Shown: piece after piece, positions 4,280-30,357 of the stretch | Numbering within the stretch: position 1 is the first letter of the stretch | Layout of the letters: every line of letters starts with the position of its first letter | Translations under genes and position numbers: made by a program | IMG/VR virus record: IMGVR_UViG_3300025634_000007 | Coordinates: 1-33,742 of that record | Direction: 5' to 3' (one strand) | Source of the DNA: a virus | Length of the DNA: 33,742 nucleotides | Notes under the pieces: generated by a model | The model's input: the letters and a program-made list of their open reading frames with translations, nothing else | What the model was told of the DNA's origin: nothing | The model's database searches: none

Positions 4280-4753
4280 GCTCGGCTGACGAGATGCGGC
4301 CGAGGAGTTCTTCGACGGTCATGCTGAGCTCGCGGGCTAGGCCGAAGCAGAATCTCCTGACGGGGCGGTCTCGGAGGCTTTTCCCATCTCGTCCAGTGCG
4401 CCCTTGTTTATGCCGGACAGCCGGGCCGCCACGTCCCACACCCGGTCCAGCGCGGCGGCGGACAGCTCACCGAGCGCGGCGACATCGCGCTGGGTGAACA
4501 GAGGCTCGCCGTCCTCGCCGACGATGGTCCAGGCGGCGAGCTTGGCCCGGGCGTTCGCCACGTCGGGCACCATCTGGCCGCCGCGCTGCACGGCCATCGA
4601 CGCTTCCCATTCATCACGCTCACGTCCTCGCAACTCCCGCACCAGCACCACGTCCGAGCCGCTGGCCGGGTCGGCCCATTCCGGAACCCTTACCTCCTCG
4701 GTGCGCAGTGCGGAGGCCTTCAGGATCGCGTCCCGGCCGAGGTAGGAGCCCAA
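4209..4753 (-). CDS. Tail assembly chaperone, long form made by -1 frameshift (gpGT-like)
   Basis: The long product joins two overlapping frames. Translation starts at 4753, slips back one base at GGGAAAA (base 4379 read twice) and ends at 4209, giving 181 residues. After the slip the sequence runs SLRDRPVRRFCFGLAREL, then MTVEELLGRISSAELTEWMAWY. This is the typical C-terminal part of siphovirus chaperones between the major tail and tape measure genes. In lambda the G and GT proteins coat the tape measure during tail tube assembly. Gene position, slippery site and the family match of both halves agree. The ratio of the two forms cannot be seen from sequence. Confidence 0.85.
4337..4753 (-). 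CDS. Tail assembly chaperone, short form (gpG-like)
   Basis: The unshifted product is 138 residues. It starts at TTG 4753, weakly supported by AAAGG upstream, and begins in the way of this family (LGRDAILKA, then VRVPEW and VRELRGRERDEWEAS). The start overlaps the end of the HNH gene at 4720, which suggests that the nuclease gene was inserted directly in front of it. The final residues after GGAAAA (ASETAPSGDSASA) are low complexity, as expected of a tail used only when no frameshift occurs. Confidence 0.82.
   Translation of the reverse strand: MGSYLGRDAILKASALRTEEVRVPEWADPASGSDVVLVRELRGRERDEWEASMAVQRGGQMVPDVANARAKLAAWTIVGEDGEPLFTQRDVAALGELSAAALDRVWDVAARLSGINKGALDEMGKASETAPSGDSASA
4379..4385 (-). 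promoter_or_regulatory. Programmed -1 ribosomal frameshift site GGGAAAA
   Basis: On the minus strand the heptamer GGGAAAA lies in the correct phase: G from ATG, then GGA, then AAA. It matches X_XXY_YYZ and is followed by an open -1 frame encoding the conserved chaperone C-terminus. The zero frame stops 42 bases later at 4337. Confidence 0.85.
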
Positions 4754-5217
4754 GTTATTTCGCCTTTCGCGTGGTCAAGGATGCAATGCTCGCCCCTGCC
4801 CTTGCTTTGATTGCAGCGTCGGCAGAGCGTCTGATAGCCGGGCGGGAAACCCTGCTTGACCAGCCAGAAATAGAAGGTGTTGCCCGCGCGGCCCTGCGAG
4901 TGGCCGAATAGTGCCTCACGGTGCCGCTTGCCGTTGCCGTCGACGTGATCGATGCTCGGGTTTTCCGTCGTGCCGCAGCAGGCACAGGACCAGCCGTAGT
5001 GGTCGAAAACCTGCGATCTGTGACTGCCCTGATATTTACGCTTACCCTCAGCCGCTGGCCGGCGGTGGGTTTCGTAGTAGCTGCGCGACCGCGAACAGGT
5101 GCAGTCCCGGCAGTCATTTCTGCGTCCGTCAGGCGCGCCGTCTCCGCGGCGGTAGAAATCATCCAGCGGTTTGACCTGGCCGCATACGACGCAGCGTTTC
5201 GTGGCAATATCAGGCAT
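4720..5217 (-). CDS. HNH homing-type endonuclease between major tail protein and chaperone
   Basis: This 165-residue protein starts at ATG 5217 after AAGGTGAG. The N-terminal zinc-binding region has C9-x2-C12 and C36-x2-C39. The HNH nuclease part has C77/C79/C80, the metal-binding D89-H90 in IDHVDGNG, and C131-x2-C134-N135 in CRRCNQSKG. Free-standing HNH nucleases of this type act as selfish elements in phage genomes. Its 3' end overlaps the chaperone start by about 34 bases, so it appears tightly packed into an existing tail operon. All expected catalytic and zinc residues are present. Confidence 0.9.
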   Translation of the reverse strand: MPDIATKRCVVCGQVKPLDDFYRRGDGAPDGRRNDCRDCTCSRSRSYYETHRRPAAEGKRKYQGSHRSQVFDHYGWSCACCGTTENPSIDHVDGNGKRHREALFGHSQGRAGNTFYFWLVKQGFPPGYQTLCRRCNQSKGRGEHCILDHAKGEITWAPTSAGTRS

Positions 5218-10518: not shown

Positions 10519-12825
10519 CTAGCTCGGTCCTCCCGTCCTGGTGCTGGTGGCGGTCAGCGTCCCGGAGGCCGGGGCGCCGTAGGTGCCGGCGTACTCCGCC
10601 TGGTATTCCGCGTCGGAACTTGCCGCGGCGGCTGTGCTGGCCGTCAGCGTCCCCGCAGACGCCGCTGCGGTCAGGACCCCGGCGGGTACCCCGTTGGCTG
10701 TCAGCGTCGCGCCTGGTGTCGTGGAGGTCGTCAGGGCGCCGACGGTGAACGCGACCTGCAGGCTGCCCGCCGCGGTGACCGCGCCGGCGCCGGTGATGGC
10801 CGCGATGGCCTGCTGGGCGGCCAGGGCGGACAGGACCCCCGCGCTAGCCGCGCCGGCCACGGCCTGCTGGGCGGCTTTCGCGGTAGCCGCAGCCGCCCCG
10901 GCCACGTTCGCGGTGCCGGTGATGTACCCGGCCGCCGTAACTGATCCCGCTCCGGCTGCGGCCGCCTTCGCGGCCTGAGCCGCCGCGGCGGCGACCGCCC
11001 CGGCGCCGGCTGCAGCGCCCGTGGCGGCCTGGGCAGACGCCGCAGCGGCCGTTCCGGCACCGGCGACGTTAGCGGTGGCCCCCGCGCCGGTGACGCTGCC
11101 CGCCGCCGTGACCGACCCGGCACCGGCCGCGGACGCGATGACGATCTGGGTGGCGACGTCAGCGACGGCGCCCGCGCCCGCCGCGGACCCGGCGGCAGAC
11201 TGGGCAGCGGTCCCGGTGGCCGCACCCGCGCCAGCGGCAGACGCGGGAGCGATCTGGGTGACGACCGCCGTGACCGACCCGGCCCCGGCGCCGGCCGCCG
11301 TTGACTGGCCGGATACCGATCCCGCCGCAGTGACCGCCCCGGCACCTGCGGCCGAGGCGACGGCGATCTGCGTCGCGACGTCGGTGACGGCGCCTGATGC
11401 CGCCGCGCCCGCGCCCGCTGCCTGGGTGACGGGCGCCGGTCCAGATGTCCCGGCACCCGCCGCGGCGGCACCAGCGGACTGGACCGCGACCGTGCTGGCC
11501 ACGCCAGCACCTGCCGCGGCTGCCTTGACGACCTCAGTGGTGACCGCGCTGGCCGACCCGGTCCCGGCCGCCGTAGCGACCGCGATCTGGGTGGCGACGT
11601 CAGATGCCGACCCGCTGCCCGCAGCGGCCCCGGGTGCGGCCTGAATGGCAGGCGCGGGCCCGGCTGTCCCGGCTCCGGCTGCGGTGGCACTGGCTGCCTG
11701 AACGGCTTGAGTGGTGACGGCCCCGGCGCCAGCTGCAGCCGCCGGGGCGGTCTGGGTGGCGACGGCCGTGACCGATCCGGCCCCGGCCGCCGCAGCGGTG
11801 GACGCGCCTCCCACCGACCCGGCCGCGGTGACCGACCCGGCGCCAGCTGCGGCGGCACCGGCGATCTGGATCACTACGTCAGTGACAGCGCCAGCACCTG
11901 CCGCGGCTGCGGTAGATCCCTGGACGGCTGTCGCGGTCTCTGCGCCAGCCCCGGCCGCAGCCGCTACGGCGATCTGGGTGACGACCGTGACCGCTGCGCC
12001 AGCGCCAGCCGCCGTAGCCTTGGCCGCCTGCGTCGCGATGGCGGTGACAGCCCCGGCCCCGGCGGAGGCGCCCGGCGCGACCTGGGTCGCTACGGCAGAG
12101 GCAGCCCCGCCGCCAGCTGCGGAGGCCGGGACGATGACCGTCGCAGCCGCCGTGACCGAGCCGGCGCCTGCGGCGGCAGCCGTAGCATTTGCCTGGTAGA
12201 ACGTGGCGGCAACGGCGGTGTAAACGCTGGAAGCCAGCGTTCCGGAGAACGTGCAGGTGCCCGTTGCCGAGACGATCTGGTAGCCGCCCGCCCACCCCGG
12301 CGCTACGGTCCCGGTGCTGCCTGTCAGGGCGGTCCAGGTTCCCGCGCCGGTCACCGTGAGCGCGGTACCCGCGCAAGCCGTCCCGAAGAAAATCTCGTTA
12401 GCCTGCGTCGTAGTGGCGGTGGCCAGGGAGGTGAACGTGGTGGCCGCGGTATGGACCTGGCCCTGCGTCTTGTCGGCGGCCAGGACCCCCGGGATCTCGT
12501 AGGCCACGGCGTAGACGGAGACGCTCCCGCTGCCCGAATAGGTGACGACTACCGATGTCGCCCCGGATACGCTGACACCCGGGTCTGACCAGATTTCCGC
12601 GTCGGTCTCGACAACGTTCTGCACCGACTTCACTGACGCGAAATGGTCGGCGTTACCGCCGAGCTTGATGCCGCTGACCACGGGGTTGGTCGTAGCCCCC
12701 CCGGCGCCGAACAAGACGACGACGGTGTTCCCCGGGGTGACCGCGCTGCCGAAAGTGCAGGTGACGGTGCTGGCGGCGGTGGTGCTGGTTGCTACCGCCG
12801 TTACCTGGACCGGGGTCAGGGTCAC
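10519..12825 (-). CDS. Large Ala/Gly repeat fibre-like protein
   Basis: This is a 768-residue protein starting at GTG 12825. Residues ~1-212 form a Thr/Val/Ser-rich beta domain with few charges. From ~213 to ~640 the sequence is a long array of ~18-residue units of the type AAAGAGAVTxVATQIA, with Gly-Ala-Gly turns followed by a short beta strand. The last ~100 residues return to Thr/Ala-rich beta sequence, with EYQAEYAGTYGAP. The array suggests a solenoid or fibrous stalk. It lies directly before the spike gene, with its stop one base from the spike ribosome site. It may be a fibre, or a stalk that carries the spike. I know no characterised homologue. Confidence 0.7.
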   Translation of the reverse strand: MTLTPVQVTAVATSTTAASTVTCTFGSAVTPGNTVVVLFGAGGATTNPVVSGIKLGGNADHFASVKSVQNVVETDAEIWSDPGVSVSGATSVVVTYSGSGSVSVYAVAYEIPGVLAADKTQGQVHTAATTFTSLATATTTQANEIFFGTACAGTALTVTGAGTWTALTGSTGTVAPGWAGGYQIVSATGTCTFSGTLASSVYTAVAATFYQANATAAAAGAGSVTAAATVIVPASAAGGGAASAVATQVAPGASAGAGAVTAIATQAAKATAAGAGAAVTVVTQIAVAAAAGAGAETATAVQGSTAAAAGAGAVTDVVIQIAGAAAAGAGSVTAAGSVGGASTAAAAGAGSVTAVATQTAPAAAAGAGAVTTQAVQAASATAAGAGTAGPAPAIQAAPGAAAGSGSASDVATQIAVATAAGTGSASAVTTEVVKAAAAGAGVASTVAVQSAGAAAAGAGTSGPAPVTQAAGAGAAASGAVTDVATQIAVASAAGAGAVTAAGSVSGQSTAAGAGAGSVTAVVTQIAPASAAGAGAATGTAAQSAAGSAAGAGAVADVATQIVIASAAGAGSVTAAGSVTGAGATANVAGAGTAAAASAQAATGAAAGAGAVAAAAAQAAKAAAAGAGSVTAAGYITGTANVAGAAAATAKAAQQAVAGAASAGVLSALAAQQAIAAITGAGAVTAAGSLQVAFTVGALTTSTTPGATLTANGVPAGVLTAAASAGTLTASTAAAASSDAEYQAEYAGTYGAPASGTLTATSTRTGGPS
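10860..12195. repeat. Degenerate ~54-57 bp coding repeat array
   Basis: Repeated GC-rich units encode the Ala/Gly repeats of the fibre-like protein. Units differ in third positions and in a few codons, so they are ancient or diversifying rather than fresh duplications. Borders are approximate. Confidence 0.7.
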
Positions 12826-17472: not shown

Positions 17473-18141
17473 TCAGCCTGCTTTCCCGGCCAGCATGTCC
17501 AGCATGGCAGCCGCGTGATACTCCGCGATGTACTCCATCAGGTCCTGCACCCGCTGGCCGGTCGGCTGCACCACAAGCCACAGCTCCAGGTTCTCCGGGT
17601 ACCGGTTATCTGACTTGATGCCGTTCTTGTGGTGGACATTCTCGATGCCCGCCAGGCGCCGGCCAAGGGCTTGCTCCATAACGAGCACGTGCTCGAGGAC
17701 CCGGCGGCCATCTGGCAGCGTGCGCCGGACGTATCCCTCTTTCGTCGGCTTGACGACGCCTCTGACCCGTATCGGCTGCGCCGGGCCTACCTCGCCTGTG
17801 CGGCGCAGTCTCTCGCCGTGGAGGTGGCAGTAGGCCGCGCCCTTGCGGCGGCGGTCGCAGCCTTCAACCGCGCAGGACTGCTGCGGGGCTGGCGTGCGCC
17901 CCGGCCGCATCCGGCCTGCCGGGCCTGGTTCGCCGGTGGCCCGGATCCGGGATCTGTGCATGGCGCAGTAGCCGCGCGACTCGGTGACTTTCTCGCAGCC
18001 CTCAACCGAGCATTGAGACTTAGGCTGCCATTCGCGGGCTTCGAGCGTTCCCGCCCGGCGCAGCCGGGTGTAGTGCATGCGGCAGAGACCGCGAGCCACT
18101 ACGACCCGGCTGCACCCTTCGACACTGCATATCTCGTTCAT
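17473..18141 (-). CDS. HNH homing endonuclease with three zinc-finger modules, next to the intron-bearing capsid gene
   Basis: This is a 222-residue protein with ATG 18141. Three N-terminal modules of the type C-x4-C-x9/10-C-x2-H lie near residues 5-24, 44-63 and 90-109 (CSVEGCSRVVVARGLCRMH is the first). A linker with GYVRRTLPDGRRVLEHVLVM precedes the HNH_3-type core ENVHHKNGIKSDNRYPENLE near residues 166-187. The gene lies 45 bases after the 3' exon of the capsid gene and outside the intron. Free-standing nucleases can mobilise a nearby intron that lacks its own ORF (collaborative homing), which fits here. Activity and target are inferred. Confidence 0.9.
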   Translation of the reverse strand: MNEICSVEGCSRVVVARGLCRMHYTRLRRAGTLEAREWQPKSQCSVEGCEKVTESRGYCAMHRSRIRATGEPGPAGRMRPGRTPAPQQSCAVEGCDRRRKGAAYCHLHGERLRRTGEVGPAQPIRVRGVVKPTKEGYVRRTLPDGRRVLEHVLVMEQALGRRLAGIENVHHKNGIKSDNRYPENLELWLVVQPTGQRVQDLMEYIAEYHAAAMLDMLAGKAG

Positions 18142-18186: not shown

Positions 18187-19902
18187 TCAGGCGCCCTTCA
18201 TTACGCGGAAAGCGTTGGGAACGGCGACCTGGCTGGATGTCCTCCAGAACATGAACCACGGATTGTTACTCACTCATCACGGTAAGTGAGGCCAGGTCAT
18301 TTCTGCCTGGCTCTGCATCTTTGCCATCGATGCAGACCGGACTATATCTTCAGCTCCAGCCCTGCTCAGCTATGCCGGCTTCACAGGTCTATCGGAGTTG
18401 CCTCGCGTGTAGTCTCTACGGACTCCCCGGCACGGGTTGCCTCGGTATTCCCCTTGGATTGGCGGGGTTCACCGATACAGCGTGGTTTTCACTGACAGAT
18501 CGCTCTGTCAGGCGGCCAGTTCGAATTGACCGGCCTGCCCTCCGGGCAGGATGCCACCCGTCTGCTTGACGAGCGGCTCATAGATGAGCGAAACGCCCAC
18601 TCGGTCAACCACTATGAATTGCCCGAAGTCGCCCATGACGGTTTCGAGGGCGCCGCTGGTGGTGACGCCGCCCATCGTGGTCGACTCGTAGATCGGCGCG
18701 CCGAGCAGCGTCTCCGGCTGCCCCTTGCCGAGGTTGGTCCAGAACGACGCGCCGCCGGCGGTGTCGAGCTGCCGGAACTTGTTGATGATCGCCACGTTGG
18801 CGACCCATGCGCAGCCGGGAGCGTTCCGGAACCGCGGCGGGAGCGCGCCCTGGACGGCGTAGATGTCGCCGACCGCGACGACCAGCGTGGTCGCCGTGGT
18901 GATGACCGTGGTGGCGCCGGTGATGACGCCCTGCGGGACGCCGCCCGATCCGGCGCCGGTAGCGAACGCGGCCTCTTCCAGCCGGTCCTTGGCGTCCGCG
19001 AGGAGCCGGGGGAGCTGCTGGCCGAAGTCGGTGTCCTCCAGGACTTCGTACGAGCCGAACACCCAGGCCGCGGCCTTCTGCGGGGTGATCTGGACGTTCC
19101 CCACGGTCGGCGTGTTGTCGGTGGTGATCGTGCCTTCAGTGAGCCACGCCGCGTTCACGCCCGCCGACGTGACGCCGTTCCACGTGTTGCTGGTGGTCTG
19201 CTTGACGTTGCTGATCCGCCGCCACGGGTTCGCCGACCCCGTGTTCGTCAGGATTATGGTCGGGTCGAGAACAAAAGGCAGGAGGTACCCGCCGTTCGCG
19301 AGGGTCAGGCTCAGCGCGGCGCGCTGGGCGTTGCCCTGCGGGTCCTCCATGTAGGCGCGGAACGCCTCCTGGTACTCCTCGGACCCGGTGGTCAGCATGT
19401 GCTCGGCGACGCCGCGGCCGAGGGTGCCGGGATTCTCCTGCACCATCCGGGTCGCGTTCTCCGCGAAGTCGCTGGCGAGGTTGCCGCGCTTGACTTCCAT
19501 CTCGATCGCGTCGAACGCCCGGCCGCGGAGCTCGTTCGTGCGGACAGTGTGGTGGCGTACCGCGTCGAGGTCCTCGTACGGGTTGCGGTACCGGCTGCCG
19601 ATCAGGTCCGGGTTGCCGCCGCGGTAGGGGCTGTCCCGCCTGCCGTCGCCCGCGTTCTGGTTGATGGTGCCGTCGGGCCGCTCGAGGTTGCCCTCGTCGT
19701 CGGCGGCGCGGGTGATGCCGCGGATCCGCTCCATCCGCTCGATGAGCGGCTTGGACTTGGCGTCCAGTTCCTCCCAGCGGGTCAGGAGGCTGTCGCGGTA
19801 GTCGCCGTCGGCCTCCTCGGTGATCTCCTCGGAGTTCTCCATCCGCTGGAGCTCGATCTTGATCCTCGCCTGTTCGTCGAGGTATTCCTGCAGCGTGGCC
19901 AT
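18187..19902 (-). CDS. Major capsid protein (HK97 fold), gene split by a group I intron
   Basis: The gene is read as exon 1 (19902-18529, 458 codons) joined to exon 2 (18255-18187, 22 codons plus stop), giving 480 residues. Residues ~1-125 are the charged helical delta domain (MATLQEYLDEQARIKIELQ), which the prohead protease should remove. The HK97 body follows (GGYLLPFVLDPTIIL, WVFGSYEVLEDTDFGQQLPR, FGQFIVVDRVGVSLIYEP). Without splicing, the frame stops after GGQAGQFELAA and lacks the usual last strand. Splicing gives GGQAG then FMFWRTSSQVAVPNAFRV, the typical HK97 ending with WRT and P-N-A-F-R. Exon phase is preserved. Exact junctions are predicted. Confidence 0.88.
18256..18528 (-). ncRNA. 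Group I self-splicing intron in the capsid gene (273 nt, IA-like)
   Basis: Read on the minus strand, the core elements appear in order. P1 pairs exon CGGU plus intron CA with UGGCCG (18518-18513), with a U-G wobble at the splice site. P2 is CTGACAG/CTGTCAG (18511-18505, 18498-18492). P3 is TATCGG/CCGATA (18477-18472, 18395-18390). P4 is CCCCG/CGGGG (18467-18463, 18429-18425). P7 is GACTA/TAGTC (18414-18410, 18344-18340), within the classic S element AAGATATAGTCC (18350-18339). A GAG-GCAA-CUC hairpin between P7 and P3 resembles P7.1 of subgroup IA. Three hairpins follow (P9 series: 18336-18312, 18311-18291, 18290-18269). The intron ends in G. It has no ORF. Confidence 0.87.
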
Positions 19903-23873: not shown

Positions 23874-23891
23874 CTAGACCGCCCAGACGCC
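23785..23891. repeat. Direct repeat flanking a palindromic insert at the terminase 3' end
   Basis: CGCCCAGACGCC occurs at 23785-23796 and 23880-23891; with flanks the match is 16 of 17 bases. The second copy is part of the terminase coding end (PGVWAV, stop). Between them lies a perfect 11-bp inverted repeat, GTGCTCCAGGC (23816-23826) and GCCTGGAGCAC (23859-23869), with a 32-base loop. This resembles a small insertion with duplicated target, or a hairpin terminator. Confidence 0.65.
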
Positions 23892-24380
23892 CGGCGTGGC
23901 CAGTTCCTCCCACCGCGCGAACGCCCACGCGGCCAGCGTCGCCGCGACCAGCGGCGACTGATCCACGGCCACCTTCGGATCCCACGCCTGCGCGCCCGCC
24001 AGCGGCCTTTGCTGACCGCCGCGCACAGCAGCGGTCAAAGGTGCCTGGTCCAGGTGCGCCAGCCGGCCGTCGTTCACCAGGTCGAGGAACTCGCCATGCG
24101 CCACCGCCATGTCCTGCGTGTCCGGCTGCGTCACCAGGATTCCCGCCTCGGCCAGCGGCCTGATCAGCGTCCCCGACTGCGCCTTCGGGTTCACCACCAC
24201 CGCGACCGGGTCATGCTTGGCCCACAGCCCGGACATCCGCGCCACGACGCCGCGCGGATGGTCATACCAGACCAGGTCCACGACCAGGCGCGTGCCGCCC
24301 TGCTCACGGCCAGCCGCCACGATCGACGAGTGATTGCGGTCCTCGCTGATGGCCACCCCGAAGGCGACCTCGCCGCTCAC
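23874..24380 (-). CDS. Large terminase, nuclease-domain ORF (second half)
   Basis: GTG 24380 overlaps the stop of the ATPase ORF (GTGA), in the -1 frame. The 168-residue product matches the RNase H-like C-terminal half of HK97-type large terminases: GEVAFGVAISEDRNHSSIV, VVVNPKAQSGTLIRPLAEAG and WDPKVAVDQSPLVAATLAAW. This domain cuts concatemeric DNA. The first acidic position expected in the strand FGVD is Ala here, and a second expected Asp is Asn (VVVNP); D in AVDQSPL is kept. The two ORFs together total about 480 residues, normal for one intact protein. Confidence 0.8.
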   Translation of the reverse strand: MSGEVAFGVAISEDRNHSSIVAAGREQGGTRLVVDLVWYDHPRGVVARMSGLWAKHDPVAVVVNPKAQSGTLIRPLAEAGILVTQPDTQDMAVAHGEFLDLVNDGRLAHLDQAPLTAAVRGGQQRPLAGAQAWDPKVAVDQSPLVAATLAAWAFARWEELATPGVWAV

Positions 24381-25315
24381 AGCCGCACGCCTGGCACGGC
24401 GGACGCGGTCCACGTGTCCTTGCCGATGACTTCCCAGCCCGGCTTGGCCACGTCCGGCCACTGGCACAAATAGGCTCTGCGAAACTCGGGCAAATCCATC
24501 AGCTCGAAGTCGGCTTTCACGGTCTCCTCGCTCACCGTGATCCCCAAAGCGGGCATCCGCCGCCACCACGTCGCAGGATCCGCCGGGTCCTCGTCATCAG
24601 CCGCGCTGTACCCGATGTAGCAGCCGTTCGACGTCACGCCCATCTCCGCGCGGGCCCGGCCGTCCTCGACCTTCCCCCGGAAGTACGCCGACTTCTCCGT
24701 GCCCGCCGCGGACACCACCCACAGCTGCGCGTCGCGGGTCATCATCGCCGGGCGCATCGCCTGCTCCAGGTGGTCATCCTGCTGCGCCCACGCCTCGTCG
24801 ATCACGCCCAGGTCCACGACGTCGCCGTGGCCGGACGTCTGCGTACCGCTGACCAGGCCCAGCATCGACCCGTTCCTGAACACGTACGCCTCGCTGCCCG
24901 AGCCGCGGCGCACGTCGATGAACCGGCGCAGCTTCGACCGCTCGATCAGCGGCCACCACACATCCAGCAGCCGGTGCCGCGCGTCCAGCCTGGTCTGCGC
25001 CGTGTAGCTGATCTGCGTCCCCGGGCGCCGCAACCCCCGCGCCACCATCATCGACAGCAGGTCAACCGTCTTGCCCTGCTGCCGCATCACCTCGATCACG
25101 ACCTGCCGGTACGCGAACCGGCCGTCCGGGCCCAGCTCCGTCGTGACGGCGTTGACGTCATCCTGCCACGGCATCAGCCCAGGTCCGAGCGACGTGCGGA
25201 AGCCGAGCAGCCGCGCCGTCTGCCCGATCCCGGCCGCCAGGTTCGGGCGCCCGGTCGCGGGGGTGGCGAACCTAGGCCGAGCCGAGGGCGCCGAACAGTC
25301 CCGCGAGGTCGTCAT
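24377..25315 (-). CDS. Large terminase, ATPase-domain ORF (first half)
   Basis: This 312-residue protein starts at ATG 25315, overlapping the small terminase gene. The Walker A-type P loop is VMRQQGKT (residues 76-83), Walker B is LGVIDEAW (169-176) and the coupling motif is SAAGT (202-206). It ends with the segment EFRRAYLCQWPD that normally links to the nuclease domain. It drives ATP-dependent packaging through the portal. Its TGA at 24377 separates it from the nuclease part. Reinitiation at the overlapping GTG is the simplest route to two polypeptides. No slippery heptamer is seen; a sequencing error cannot be excluded. Confidence 0.88.
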   Translation of the reverse strand: MTTSRDCSAPSARPRFATPATGRPNLAAGIGQTARLLGFRTSLGPGLMPWQDDVNAVTTELGPDGRFAYRQVVIEVMRQQGKTVDLLSMMVARGLRRPGTQISYTAQTRLDARHRLLDVWWPLIERSKLRRFIDVRRGSGSEAYVFRNGSMLGLVSGTQTSGHGDVVDLGVIDEAWAQQDDHLEQAMRPAMMTRDAQLWVVSAAGTEKSAYFRGKVEDGRARAEMGVTSNGCYIGYSAADDEDPADPATWWRRMPALGITVSEETVKADFELMDLPEFRRAYLCQWPDVAKPGWEVIGKDTWTASAVPGVRL

Positions 25316-28871: not shown

Positions 28872-30278
28872 CTACGGCAGGTGCGCGTTGTCCTTCCACG
28901 TGTAGTGGTCGGACGTGCCGCCGATCGCGGTCGCGCTGCCGCGCAGCTGCGCGCCGATGCCGTCCGGCCGCACGACCAGGCCGGTGGCCACGTCCTGCAG
29001 CTGGCTGGGCTCGCCGGATAGCAGCCTGAACTGCTGCCACGGGCCGGTGTTGCACGGGGTGAGGATCAGGCCGTCCGGCACCGGGTCAGGCCAGCCGCCG
29101 CCCGGGTCGGACACGCACAGCCCGGTAGCGACGCCGCCGGCCCTGGTCGCCTCGAACTGCCACACGCCCGAGCCGCGGTTGATGCGGATGAACAGGGTGG
29201 CCGGGTCGCTGTTGTTGGCGGGCCAGCCGGCGATGATCGCGCCGGCCGCGTAGTGCTGGCGGAACACGTCGAACCCGTTGCCGAACGCGTTGACCTCATC
29301 GCCGAAGTTGCCCATGGCCGACGGCGGCGGGGTAGATGTGCTCGTGCCGGTCGGTGACGGGCTGGGCGACGGCGTGGACGGGGGGCCCGTGACGCACGGG
29401 TTCGCGTCGCTGTTGAGGAAGAAGACCCCGCCAGAGGTGGTGGAGATCCCGCTGAGGGTGAAGAACACCTGGTCGTACGGGCCGAAGCCGACACCGTTGC
29501 CGGACGTCACTACCTTGAACTCGGGGTCGGTGCCATTGACCCCGGTCAGGACGTCCGTCGTGCCGTTGAAAGTCCAGCCTGGGTTGGAACCGAACAGCGA
29601 GAACGCTACCGGAGTCGAGCCGGGGATATGCAGGGTGCTCGCGATCGCCGAGAGCGTCAGCGAGGTGCTGGTTGCGCTGCCGCCGTTCAGCTGAATGGTG
29701 AGCGCGCCAGTGGCGTTGTTGAACGTGTTGCCCTGGTACGTCAGCGTGGTGAACGTCGAGCCGTTGCTGTTCACCTGGACCTGATACTGCTCAGTGCCCT
29801 TCGCGCCGACCGAATCCTGGCCGTGGTCCCGGATCGTGTAGGTGTTCGTCCCAGTCGCCGCGCTGGCGTTGTGTATCCAGGGCGTCCCGAGTGCCACCGC
29901 ACCAGGTCCATAGGCTGCGACCTCGCCAGTGACCGAGTTGATCTGCACGCCAGGAGGCGGACCGCTCGCCCACGGCATGGTTACGCTCGGACTCAGCCAC
30001 CACAGGCTGTACGTGACAGGCGGTGTTGCGTGACTGAGGATGCCGCCGGCGTTTCCGTACGTGTCCGTGATCGGTGAAGTCGAGTCAAGCGGGTCGTTCA
30101 TGATCACGGAGTCTGTGACGCAGTTCGGCGAGCCGAGACCGAGCGTCGTCGTCGCCGGGTAAGGAGGCAGCGGCGTGGACGCCTCCGCCTGCCCCTGCCC
30201 TATCAGCCAGCCGGTGCCGGTGAGGAGCGCGAACGCGGCTCCGGCGGCTGCCAGTGACCTGATCTTGCGTCTGAACAT
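28872..30278 (-). CDS. Secreted protein with C-terminal ricin-like domain
   Basis: This 468-residue protein starts at ATG 30278, with GGAGAC eight bases upstream. The signal peptide has basic MFRRKIRS, a hydrophobic core (LAAAGAAFALLTGTGWLIG) and a likely cut after AEA near residue 33. The mature part to ~300 is Thr/Ser/Gly-rich beta sequence, perhaps Ig-like. A Pro/Ser/Thr linker (PSTPSPSPSPTG) leads to a ~140-residue C-terminal domain with LCVSDPGGGW and GPWQQFRLLSG, resembling a ricin B-type carbohydrate-binding repeat. The gene stands alone between its own terminator and a spacer. A host-modifying or cell-surface role is inferred; no catalytic motif is seen. Confidence 0.75.
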   Translation of the reverse strand: MFRRKIRSLAAAGAAFALLTGTGWLIGQGQAEASTPLPPYPATTTLGLGSPNCVTDSVIMNDPLDSTSPITDTYGNAGGILSHATPPVTYSLWWLSPSVTMPWASGPPPGVQINSVTGEVAAYGPGAVALGTPWIHNASAATGTNTYTIRDHGQDSVGAKGTEQYQVQVNSNGSTFTTLTYQGNTFNNATGALTIQLNGGSATSTSLTLSAIASTLHIPGSTPVAFSLFGSNPGWTFNGTTDVLTGVNGTDPEFKVVTSGNGVGFGPYDQVFFTLSGISTTSGGVFFLNSDANPCVTGPPSTPSPSPSPTGTSTSTPPPSAMGNFGDEVNAFGNGFDVFRQHYAAGAIIAGWPANNSDPATLFIRINRGSGVWQFEATRAGGVATGLCVSDPGGGWPDPVPDGLILTPCNTGPWQQFRLLSGEPSQLQDVATGLVVRPDGIGAQLRGSATAIGGTSDHYTWKDNAHLP

Positions 30279-30357
30279 GGGCGTTCGTCTCCTGATGTGG
30301 TCGGTTCTGAGCACTCAACCTAACAGGACGCGGCAGGAGACCGCGAGGATTACCGGT

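What the first reader, a model, noticed from the sequence alone, without database searches (positions are those of the whole stretch)
18187..18540. Unrecognised group I intron splits the major capsid gene 22 codons before its end
The minus strand shows ordered P1, P2, P3, P4, P7 and P9-type helices with the classic S element AAGATATAGTCC. The capsid frame as read ends abnormally (GQFELAA, stop). Removing 18256-18528 keeps phase, leaves U at the 5' exon end and G at the intron end, and restores a normal HK97 C-terminus (FMFWRTSSQVAVPNAFRV). Automatic gene calling would report a truncated capsid protein and miss exon 2.
Basis: partly seen in the sequence, partly recalled or inferred. Interest (0 to 1): 0.92.

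Follow-up and report, generated by a model that had tools for sequence, protein, structure and literature searches.

The report
Self-splicing intron inside phage capsid gene
A soil phage's capsid gene is interrupted 23 codons before its end by a small self-splicing RNA (a group I intron) that standard screens miss; it belongs to a known family, first proven in mycobacteriophages, which in related phages has invaded capsid genes up to five times in one gene.

Summary
The intron is real, but its 3' border was placed 3 nt too far. The correct intron is 18259-18528 (minus strand, 270 nt), ending ...AACAAUCCG | UGG. The corrected border also gives a 6-bp P10 instead of 2 of 6 pairs. Spliced MCP is 481 aa, and the Pfam Phage_capsid match then runs to profile position 279/280. 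RF00028 hits the intron (35.9 bits, E 2.6e-7) but below gathering. A 16-intron alignment supports a group I fold including the P3/P7 pseudoknot: 93% of cells paired, 28 of 55 pairs change on both sides.

It is 74% identical to introns of cluster J mycobacteriophages, where splicing was shown by RT-PCR, one of them in a capsid gene (PMC3706429). So this is a new member of a known kind.

New here: relatives occupy at least nine sites in this capsid gene, three in one gene in two phages, and up to five in a different capsid gene. The 5' ends are site-specific but cores are shared between sites, which suggests core exchange. An in-frame stop follows the guide sequence in 21 of 21 introns. Splicing in this phage is inferred, not shown.

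The parts
18529..19902 (-). Exon 1 of the HK97-type major capsid gene, 458 codons, ends ...QAG (GGU|)
   Evidence: Pfam Phage_capsid E 6.7e-34, PHROG phrog_10; contiguous homologues
18259..18528 (-). Group I intron, 270 nt, no open reading frame inside; starts CAAUUC, ends AACAAUCCG
   Evidence: RF00028 E 2.6e-7; R1 293 bits; empty sites; covariation; 74% identity to BAKA/LittleE introns
18187..18258 (-). Exon 2, 23 codons plus stop: WFMFWRTSSQVAVPNAFRVMKGA*
   Evidence: extends the Pfam Phage_capsid match from profile position 245 to 279/280
18513..18516 (-). Internal guide sequence GCCG (P1 3' strand), pairs with exon end CGGU (18529-18532) with a U.G wobble at the splice site
   Evidence: exon GAU sites carry GUC(G), exon GGU sites carry GCC(G)
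18517..18522 (-). P10 strand GAACUG, pairs 6/6 with exon 2 start UGGUUC (18253-18258)
18508..18510 (-). In-frame UGA just after the guide sequence; ends the unspliced frame at GQFELAA
   Evidence: in-frame stop at this position in 21 of 21 capsid introns
18493..18510 (-). P2 hairpin UGACAG/CUGUCA
   Evidence: 5 of 6 pairs with changes on both sides
18401..18485 (-). P3 strands CCACGC (18485-18480) and GCGAGG (18406-18401), enclosing P4, P5 and P6 and crossing P7
18340..18414 (-). P7 strands GACUA (18414-18410) and UAGUC (18344-18340), guanosine-binding helix, pseudoknotted with P3; P8 between its strands
   Evidence: 3 of 5 P7 pairs change on both sides
18269..18336 (-). P9, P9.1 and P9.2 hairpins
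17473..18141 (-). Free-standing HNH endonuclease ORF (222 aa), 45 nt after the capsid stop; candidate homing partner
   Evidence: Pfam HNH_3 E 5.1e-7, Zf_WRKY19, PHROG HNH endonuclease E 6e-24; relatives downstream of capsid in 5 of 6 same-site intron records

Best explanation
A small, ORF-less group I intron sits in phase 0 after Gly458 of the major capsid gene. Late in infection the capsid mRNA is made with the intron in it (inferred). The ribosome reads exon 1 and stops at the in-frame UGA just after the guide sequence, so it does not enter the ribozyme (stop position shown; effect inferred from published work on bacterial group I introns). The intron folds, guanosine bound at P7 cuts at U18529, P10 aligns exon 2 at U18258, and the exons are joined to give a 481-aa capsid protein (structure and empty site shown; reaction inferred from proven relatives). 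The intron belongs to a mobile lineage found mostly in phage structural genes. The neighbouring HNH gene probably cuts intron-less capsid genes and helps the intron spread in mixed infection (inferred, weak).
For: RF00028 full-length hit; exact empty sites in homologues up to 91% identical and a Trp conserved in all of them printed; same-site introns in five other records and other-site introns in four; named group I structure with pseudoknot: 93% of cells paired against 35-40% when slid, 28 of 55 pairs with changes on both sides, covariation 0 of 500 shuffles; RNAalifold finds P2, P3, P4, P5, P9 and P9.1 on its own; P10 own against swapped exons p=0.013; in-frame stop 21 of 21; 74% identity to BAKA and LittleE introns, for which RT-PCR splicing was reported (PMC3706429); spliced protein completes the Pfam domain.
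Against: No transcript of this phage has been seen. The score is below Rfam's gathering cut-off. P1 is short (4 contiguous pairs) and P3 has one A.A mismatch in this copy, shared with three other members. The HNH link is weak: p=0.03 without correction for kinship, and the HNH family also stands downstream of many intron-less capsid genes.
Confidence: 0.95

Rival explanations
1. The intron is a decayed, non-splicing remnant and the phage makes the 464-aa truncated capsid protein.
For: Score under the Rfam gathering cut-off; no expression data.
Against: Catalytic core helices intact and covarying; core 95% identical to the intron at another site in L055; exon 2 keeps its frame, its Trp and the FMFWR motif; no homologue shown ends at QFELAA.
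Confidence: 0.03
2. Group I intron with the first reader's 3' splice site at 18256 (273 nt), giving QAG-FMFWR.
For: Keeps phase and ends in G.
Against: Removes the Trp present in all homologues printed; P10 pairs 2/6 instead of 6/6; introns at the other sites end with the same AACAnnnnG block.
Confidence: 0.02
3. Mobility is by reverse splicing into the abundant capsid mRNA followed by reverse transcription, not by the HNH enzyme.
For: The guide sequence needs only 3-6 nt; relatives sit at many sites of late structural genes; nearly identical cores at different sites; no endonuclease gene inside the intron.
Against: 5' ends are site-specific and conserved between phages with different cores, which fits DNA-level exchange at fixed sites better; sites lie in the most conserved codons, as expected for homing endonuclease targets.
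Confidence: 0.25

Closest known systems
BAKA/Optimus minor tail gene intron, cluster J mycobacteriophages (PMC3706429)
   Same: 74% identical over 81% of the query, 265 nt, ORF-less, U|...G|, ends GUAACAAACCG, splicing shown by RT-PCR in that paper
   Different: lies in a minor tail gene; in-frame stop further inside (nt 31)
LittleE major capsid gene intron, cluster J mycobacteriophage (PMC3706429)
   Same: capsid gene, core 74% identical over 188 nt, splicing shown by RT-PCR and N-terminal protein sequencing in that paper
   Different: about 819 nt, carries its own endonuclease gene; sits near the processed N-terminus of its capsid gene rather than the C-terminal end
T4 td/nrdB/nrdD and other T4-type phage group I introns
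   Same: phage mRNA group I introns; in-frame stop just inside the intron is a general feature (PMC3073962)
   Different: only 3 nt between P7 and P3' here, no room for P7.1/P7.2, so not subgroup IA, which I recall for the T4 introns (from memory)
Staphylococcus phage Twort introns (from memory: one gene with three introns)
   Same: several group I introns in one phage gene
   Different: here relatives reach three in this capsid gene (L058, L062) and five in another capsid gene (L143, L173), in uncultivated phages

Membership tests
Group I intron (RF00028) | Conserved core helices P3-P8 with P3/P7 pseudoknot | tested here: met
   RF00028 model 1-253 aligned; named structure with pseudoknot covaries
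Group I intron (RF00028) | Score at or above Rfam gathering cut-off (50 bits) | tested here: not met
   35.9 bits; this is an annotation cut-off, not a biological criterion; 13 relatives found by R1 in 50 records also fail it
Group I intron (RF00028) | U at the end of exon 1 in a U.G pair with the guide sequence, and G as last intron base | tested here: met
Group I intron (RF00028) | Intron-less alleles lacking exactly the insert | tested here: met
Group I intron (RF00028) | Guanosine-dependent self-splicing | not testable with these tools
   shown for relatives only as splicing in vivo (PMC3706429)
Cluster J mycobacteriophage intron family | Sequence identity over the core | tested here: met
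   74.4-74.8% over 232 nt, E about 1e-31
Mobile intron with free-standing homing endonuclease (collaborative homing) | Adjacent endonuclease whose presence goes with the intron | tested here: inconclusive
   5/6 against 16/47, p=0.03, not corrected for kinship
HK97-fold major capsid gene | Pfam Phage_capsid domain completed by exon 2 | tested here: met
   profile 1-279/280 after splicing, 1-245 before

The most novel reading that the evidence does not exclude
A lineage of minimal, ORF-less group I introns is specialised on late structural genes of phages, above all major capsid genes. It re-targets by keeping site-specific 5' ends (guide sequence, P10 strand, in-frame stop) while exchanging its catalytic core between sites, and it can load one capsid gene with up to five introns without blocking the most highly expressed protein of the virus.
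Probability: 0.4. Interest if true: 0.68.

Novelty: new member of a known kind. Interest (0 to 1): 0.47.

Why it matters
Capsid gene calls in such phages are truncated or split, and the Rfam cut-off hides the cause: none of the 50 related records reached it, while a family-specific model found 13 introns in 8 of them. The wider family turns a published curiosity of three cluster J phages into a recurrent pattern of uncultivated phages. It also makes an open question testable: how a gene that must give hundreds of copies per virion tolerates several self-splicing introns, and how ORF-less introns move to new sites.

Tried and rejected
Intein: excluded, because the insert has in-frame stops and a ribozyme fold. 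Frameshift or sequencing error: excluded by the same insert in independent records. Rfam at the gathering cut-off: no hit. AlphaFold2 of the L001 capsid with 32 homologues: mean pLDDT 45.9, not used. Search for the intron family in bacterial genomes (exact pattern) and plasmids: nothing. Search for the capsid in bacterial genomes: no relatives, so the host remains unknown. Exclusive capsid specificity: rejected, since the wider family also lies in tail, portal, tape-measure and ribonucleotide reductase genes. P1 swap test alone is not significant (p=0.125), because most sites end in GGU.

Full report
What is there. The minus strand of the window carries a siphovirus-like head module: terminase, portal, protease, major capsid, then an HNH gene. 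The capsid frame as read ends at GQFELAA (18508). A permissive scan with Rfam finds RF00028 over its full length at 18313-18581 with 35.9 bits and E 2.6e-7; at the curated cut-off nothing is reported. The record is an uncultivated virus of 33,742 bases.

Empty site and exact borders. Sixty-three capsid homologues were found in IMG/VR. Most are uninterrupted. All of those printed have a W right after the site, usually in the context QAG-W-FMFWR. Moving the 3' splice site 3 nt upstream (intron 18259-18528, 270 nt) restores it and still leaves U before and G at the end of the intron. P10 then pairs 6 of 6 (UGGUUC with GAACUG) instead of 2 of 6. With exon 2 the Pfam capsid match runs to position 279 of 280 instead of 245.

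Relatives in the same gene. Fourteen further introns were delimited in nine records. In two multi-intron records, L058 and L062, one capsid gene carries three; L061 carries two. Counting L087, insertion points fall after NGG, LD, AWV (two-base phase), VFG, YEV (two-base phase), NLG, DRV (two-base phase), RVG and QAG: nine sites. In all complete genes the spliced frame restores a normal capsid protein; L063 runs off its contig. The sites lie in the most conserved segments (mean 95% against 85% for residues 200-475; random sites reach this with p=6e-4; two of the site numbers used there were off by one or two residues). Same-site introns are patchy on the capsid tree; the closest relative, L001 (91%), lacks the intron.

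Structure. On an alignment of 16 introns the named group I structure with the P3/P7 pseudoknot has 93.0% of cells paired (35-40% when partners are slid), 28 of 55 pairs changed on both sides, and a covariation score reached by none of 500 shuffles. RNAalifold finds P2, P3, P4, P5, P9, P9.1 and part of P9.2 unaided. Only three bases separate P7 from the P3 3' strand, so there is no room for the P7.1/P7.2 helices that mark subgroup IA (sequence; subgroup rule from general knowledge). A covariance model built from these introns matches the window exactly at 18259-18528 with 293 bits and nowhere else in the window (the window was in the training set).

Translation. In 21 of 21 capsid introns an in-frame UGA or UAG follows the guide motif directly, although the introns interrupt two different codon phases and their 5' segments before the stop vary from 12 to 31 nt. 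The lengths are thus adjusted to frame. That most group I introns carry such a stop, to keep ribosomes out of the ribozyme, is published (PMC3073962).

Mosaic ends and cores. The window intron has a 5' end 100% identical to that of L002 at the same site but a core only 71% identical; against L055 at another site the core is 95% and the 5' end 61% identical. Over 20 introns, same-site pairs are more alike than different-site pairs in the 5' end (p=0.0005) and in P2 (p=0.005), but not in the core (p=0.21) or overall in the 3' end (p=0.12). I read this as exchange of cores between sites with retention of site-specific 5' ends. Ectopic jumps followed by convergence of the guide region are not excluded.

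Mobility. The intron has no ORF. A free-standing HNH gene begins 45 nt after the capsid stop. A relative stands downstream in 5 of 6 records with the same-site intron and in 16 of 47 without it (one-sided Fisher p=0.03, not corrected for kinship). Other endonuclease-like ORFs stand at the same place in intron-less records. Collaborative homing is therefore plausible, not shown. Two wider relatives carry endonuclease genes near or inside the intron (L098, L093).

Wider family. In a scan for a 32-base P9 pattern, the hits outside the records above were almost all in major head protein genes of several families; L089 and L091 lie in a gene of unknown function (phrog_13692). A looser pattern gave 121 model hits in 71 loci. 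There the most frequent assigned genes are major head proteins, but major tail, portal, tape-measure, minor tail and ribonucleotide reductase genes occur too. Against an uninterrupted homologue (L212) a capsid gene of PHROG 1357 type is split by four introns in L161 and five in L143 and L173; exact junctions there are drafts.

What is known. Cluster J mycobacteriophages carry an intron of this family in a capsid gene (LittleE) and in a minor tail gene (BAKA, Optimus), with splicing shown by RT-PCR and, for LittleE, by N-terminal sequencing; [quoted passage not shown] The window intron is 74% identical to these. It is therefore a new member of a known kind. My literature searches did not turn up a report of phage capsid genes with several such introns, but the library is partial.

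Noticed in passing
window 24377-25315 (-) and 23874-24380 (-): The large terminase is encoded in two pieces: an ATPase ORF ending VPGVRL* and a separate nuclease ORF starting at an overlapping GTGA. The same split, with a spacer in two of them, is present in three related records (L106, L107, L108), so it is not a sequencing error.
   Followed up: partly
L143:1664-4062 (-), L173:5663-7898 (-), L161:4439-6428 (+): Capsid genes of PHROG 1357 type carry five (L143, L173) or four (L161) group I introns of this family in one gene of about 330 codons, judged against uninterrupted L212.
   Followed up: partly
L140:5453-9761 (-): Up to seven model hits in 4.3 kb of a gene family of unknown function (phrog_13692) with endonuclease-like ORFs between them.
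   Followed up: no
L167:2210-3182 (+): Two introns of the family in what reads like a portal gene, upstream of a capsid gene that also has introns on the same contig (IMGVR_UViG_3300044719_000213).
   Followed up: no
downstream of the capsid gene in many homologues (e.g. L001, L003, L036): The spot just after the capsid stop is occupied by different kinds of endonuclease-like ORFs (HNH with zinc fingers, endonuclease VII-like, and a GIY-YIG-looking kind) in both intron-plus and intron-minus phages.
   Followed up: partly
window 4720-5217 (-): Second endonuclease-like ORF (HNH/endonuclease VII PHROGs).
   Followed up: no
window 10519-12825 (-): 768-aa ORF made largely of repeated Ala/Gly/Val-rich units (AAAAGAGSVTA...), no Pfam or PHROG match.
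   Followed up: no
window 28872-30314 (-): 480-aa ORF with a signal-peptide-like start and a C-terminal part that looks like a ricin-type lectin repeat by eye; no Pfam match.
   Followed up: no
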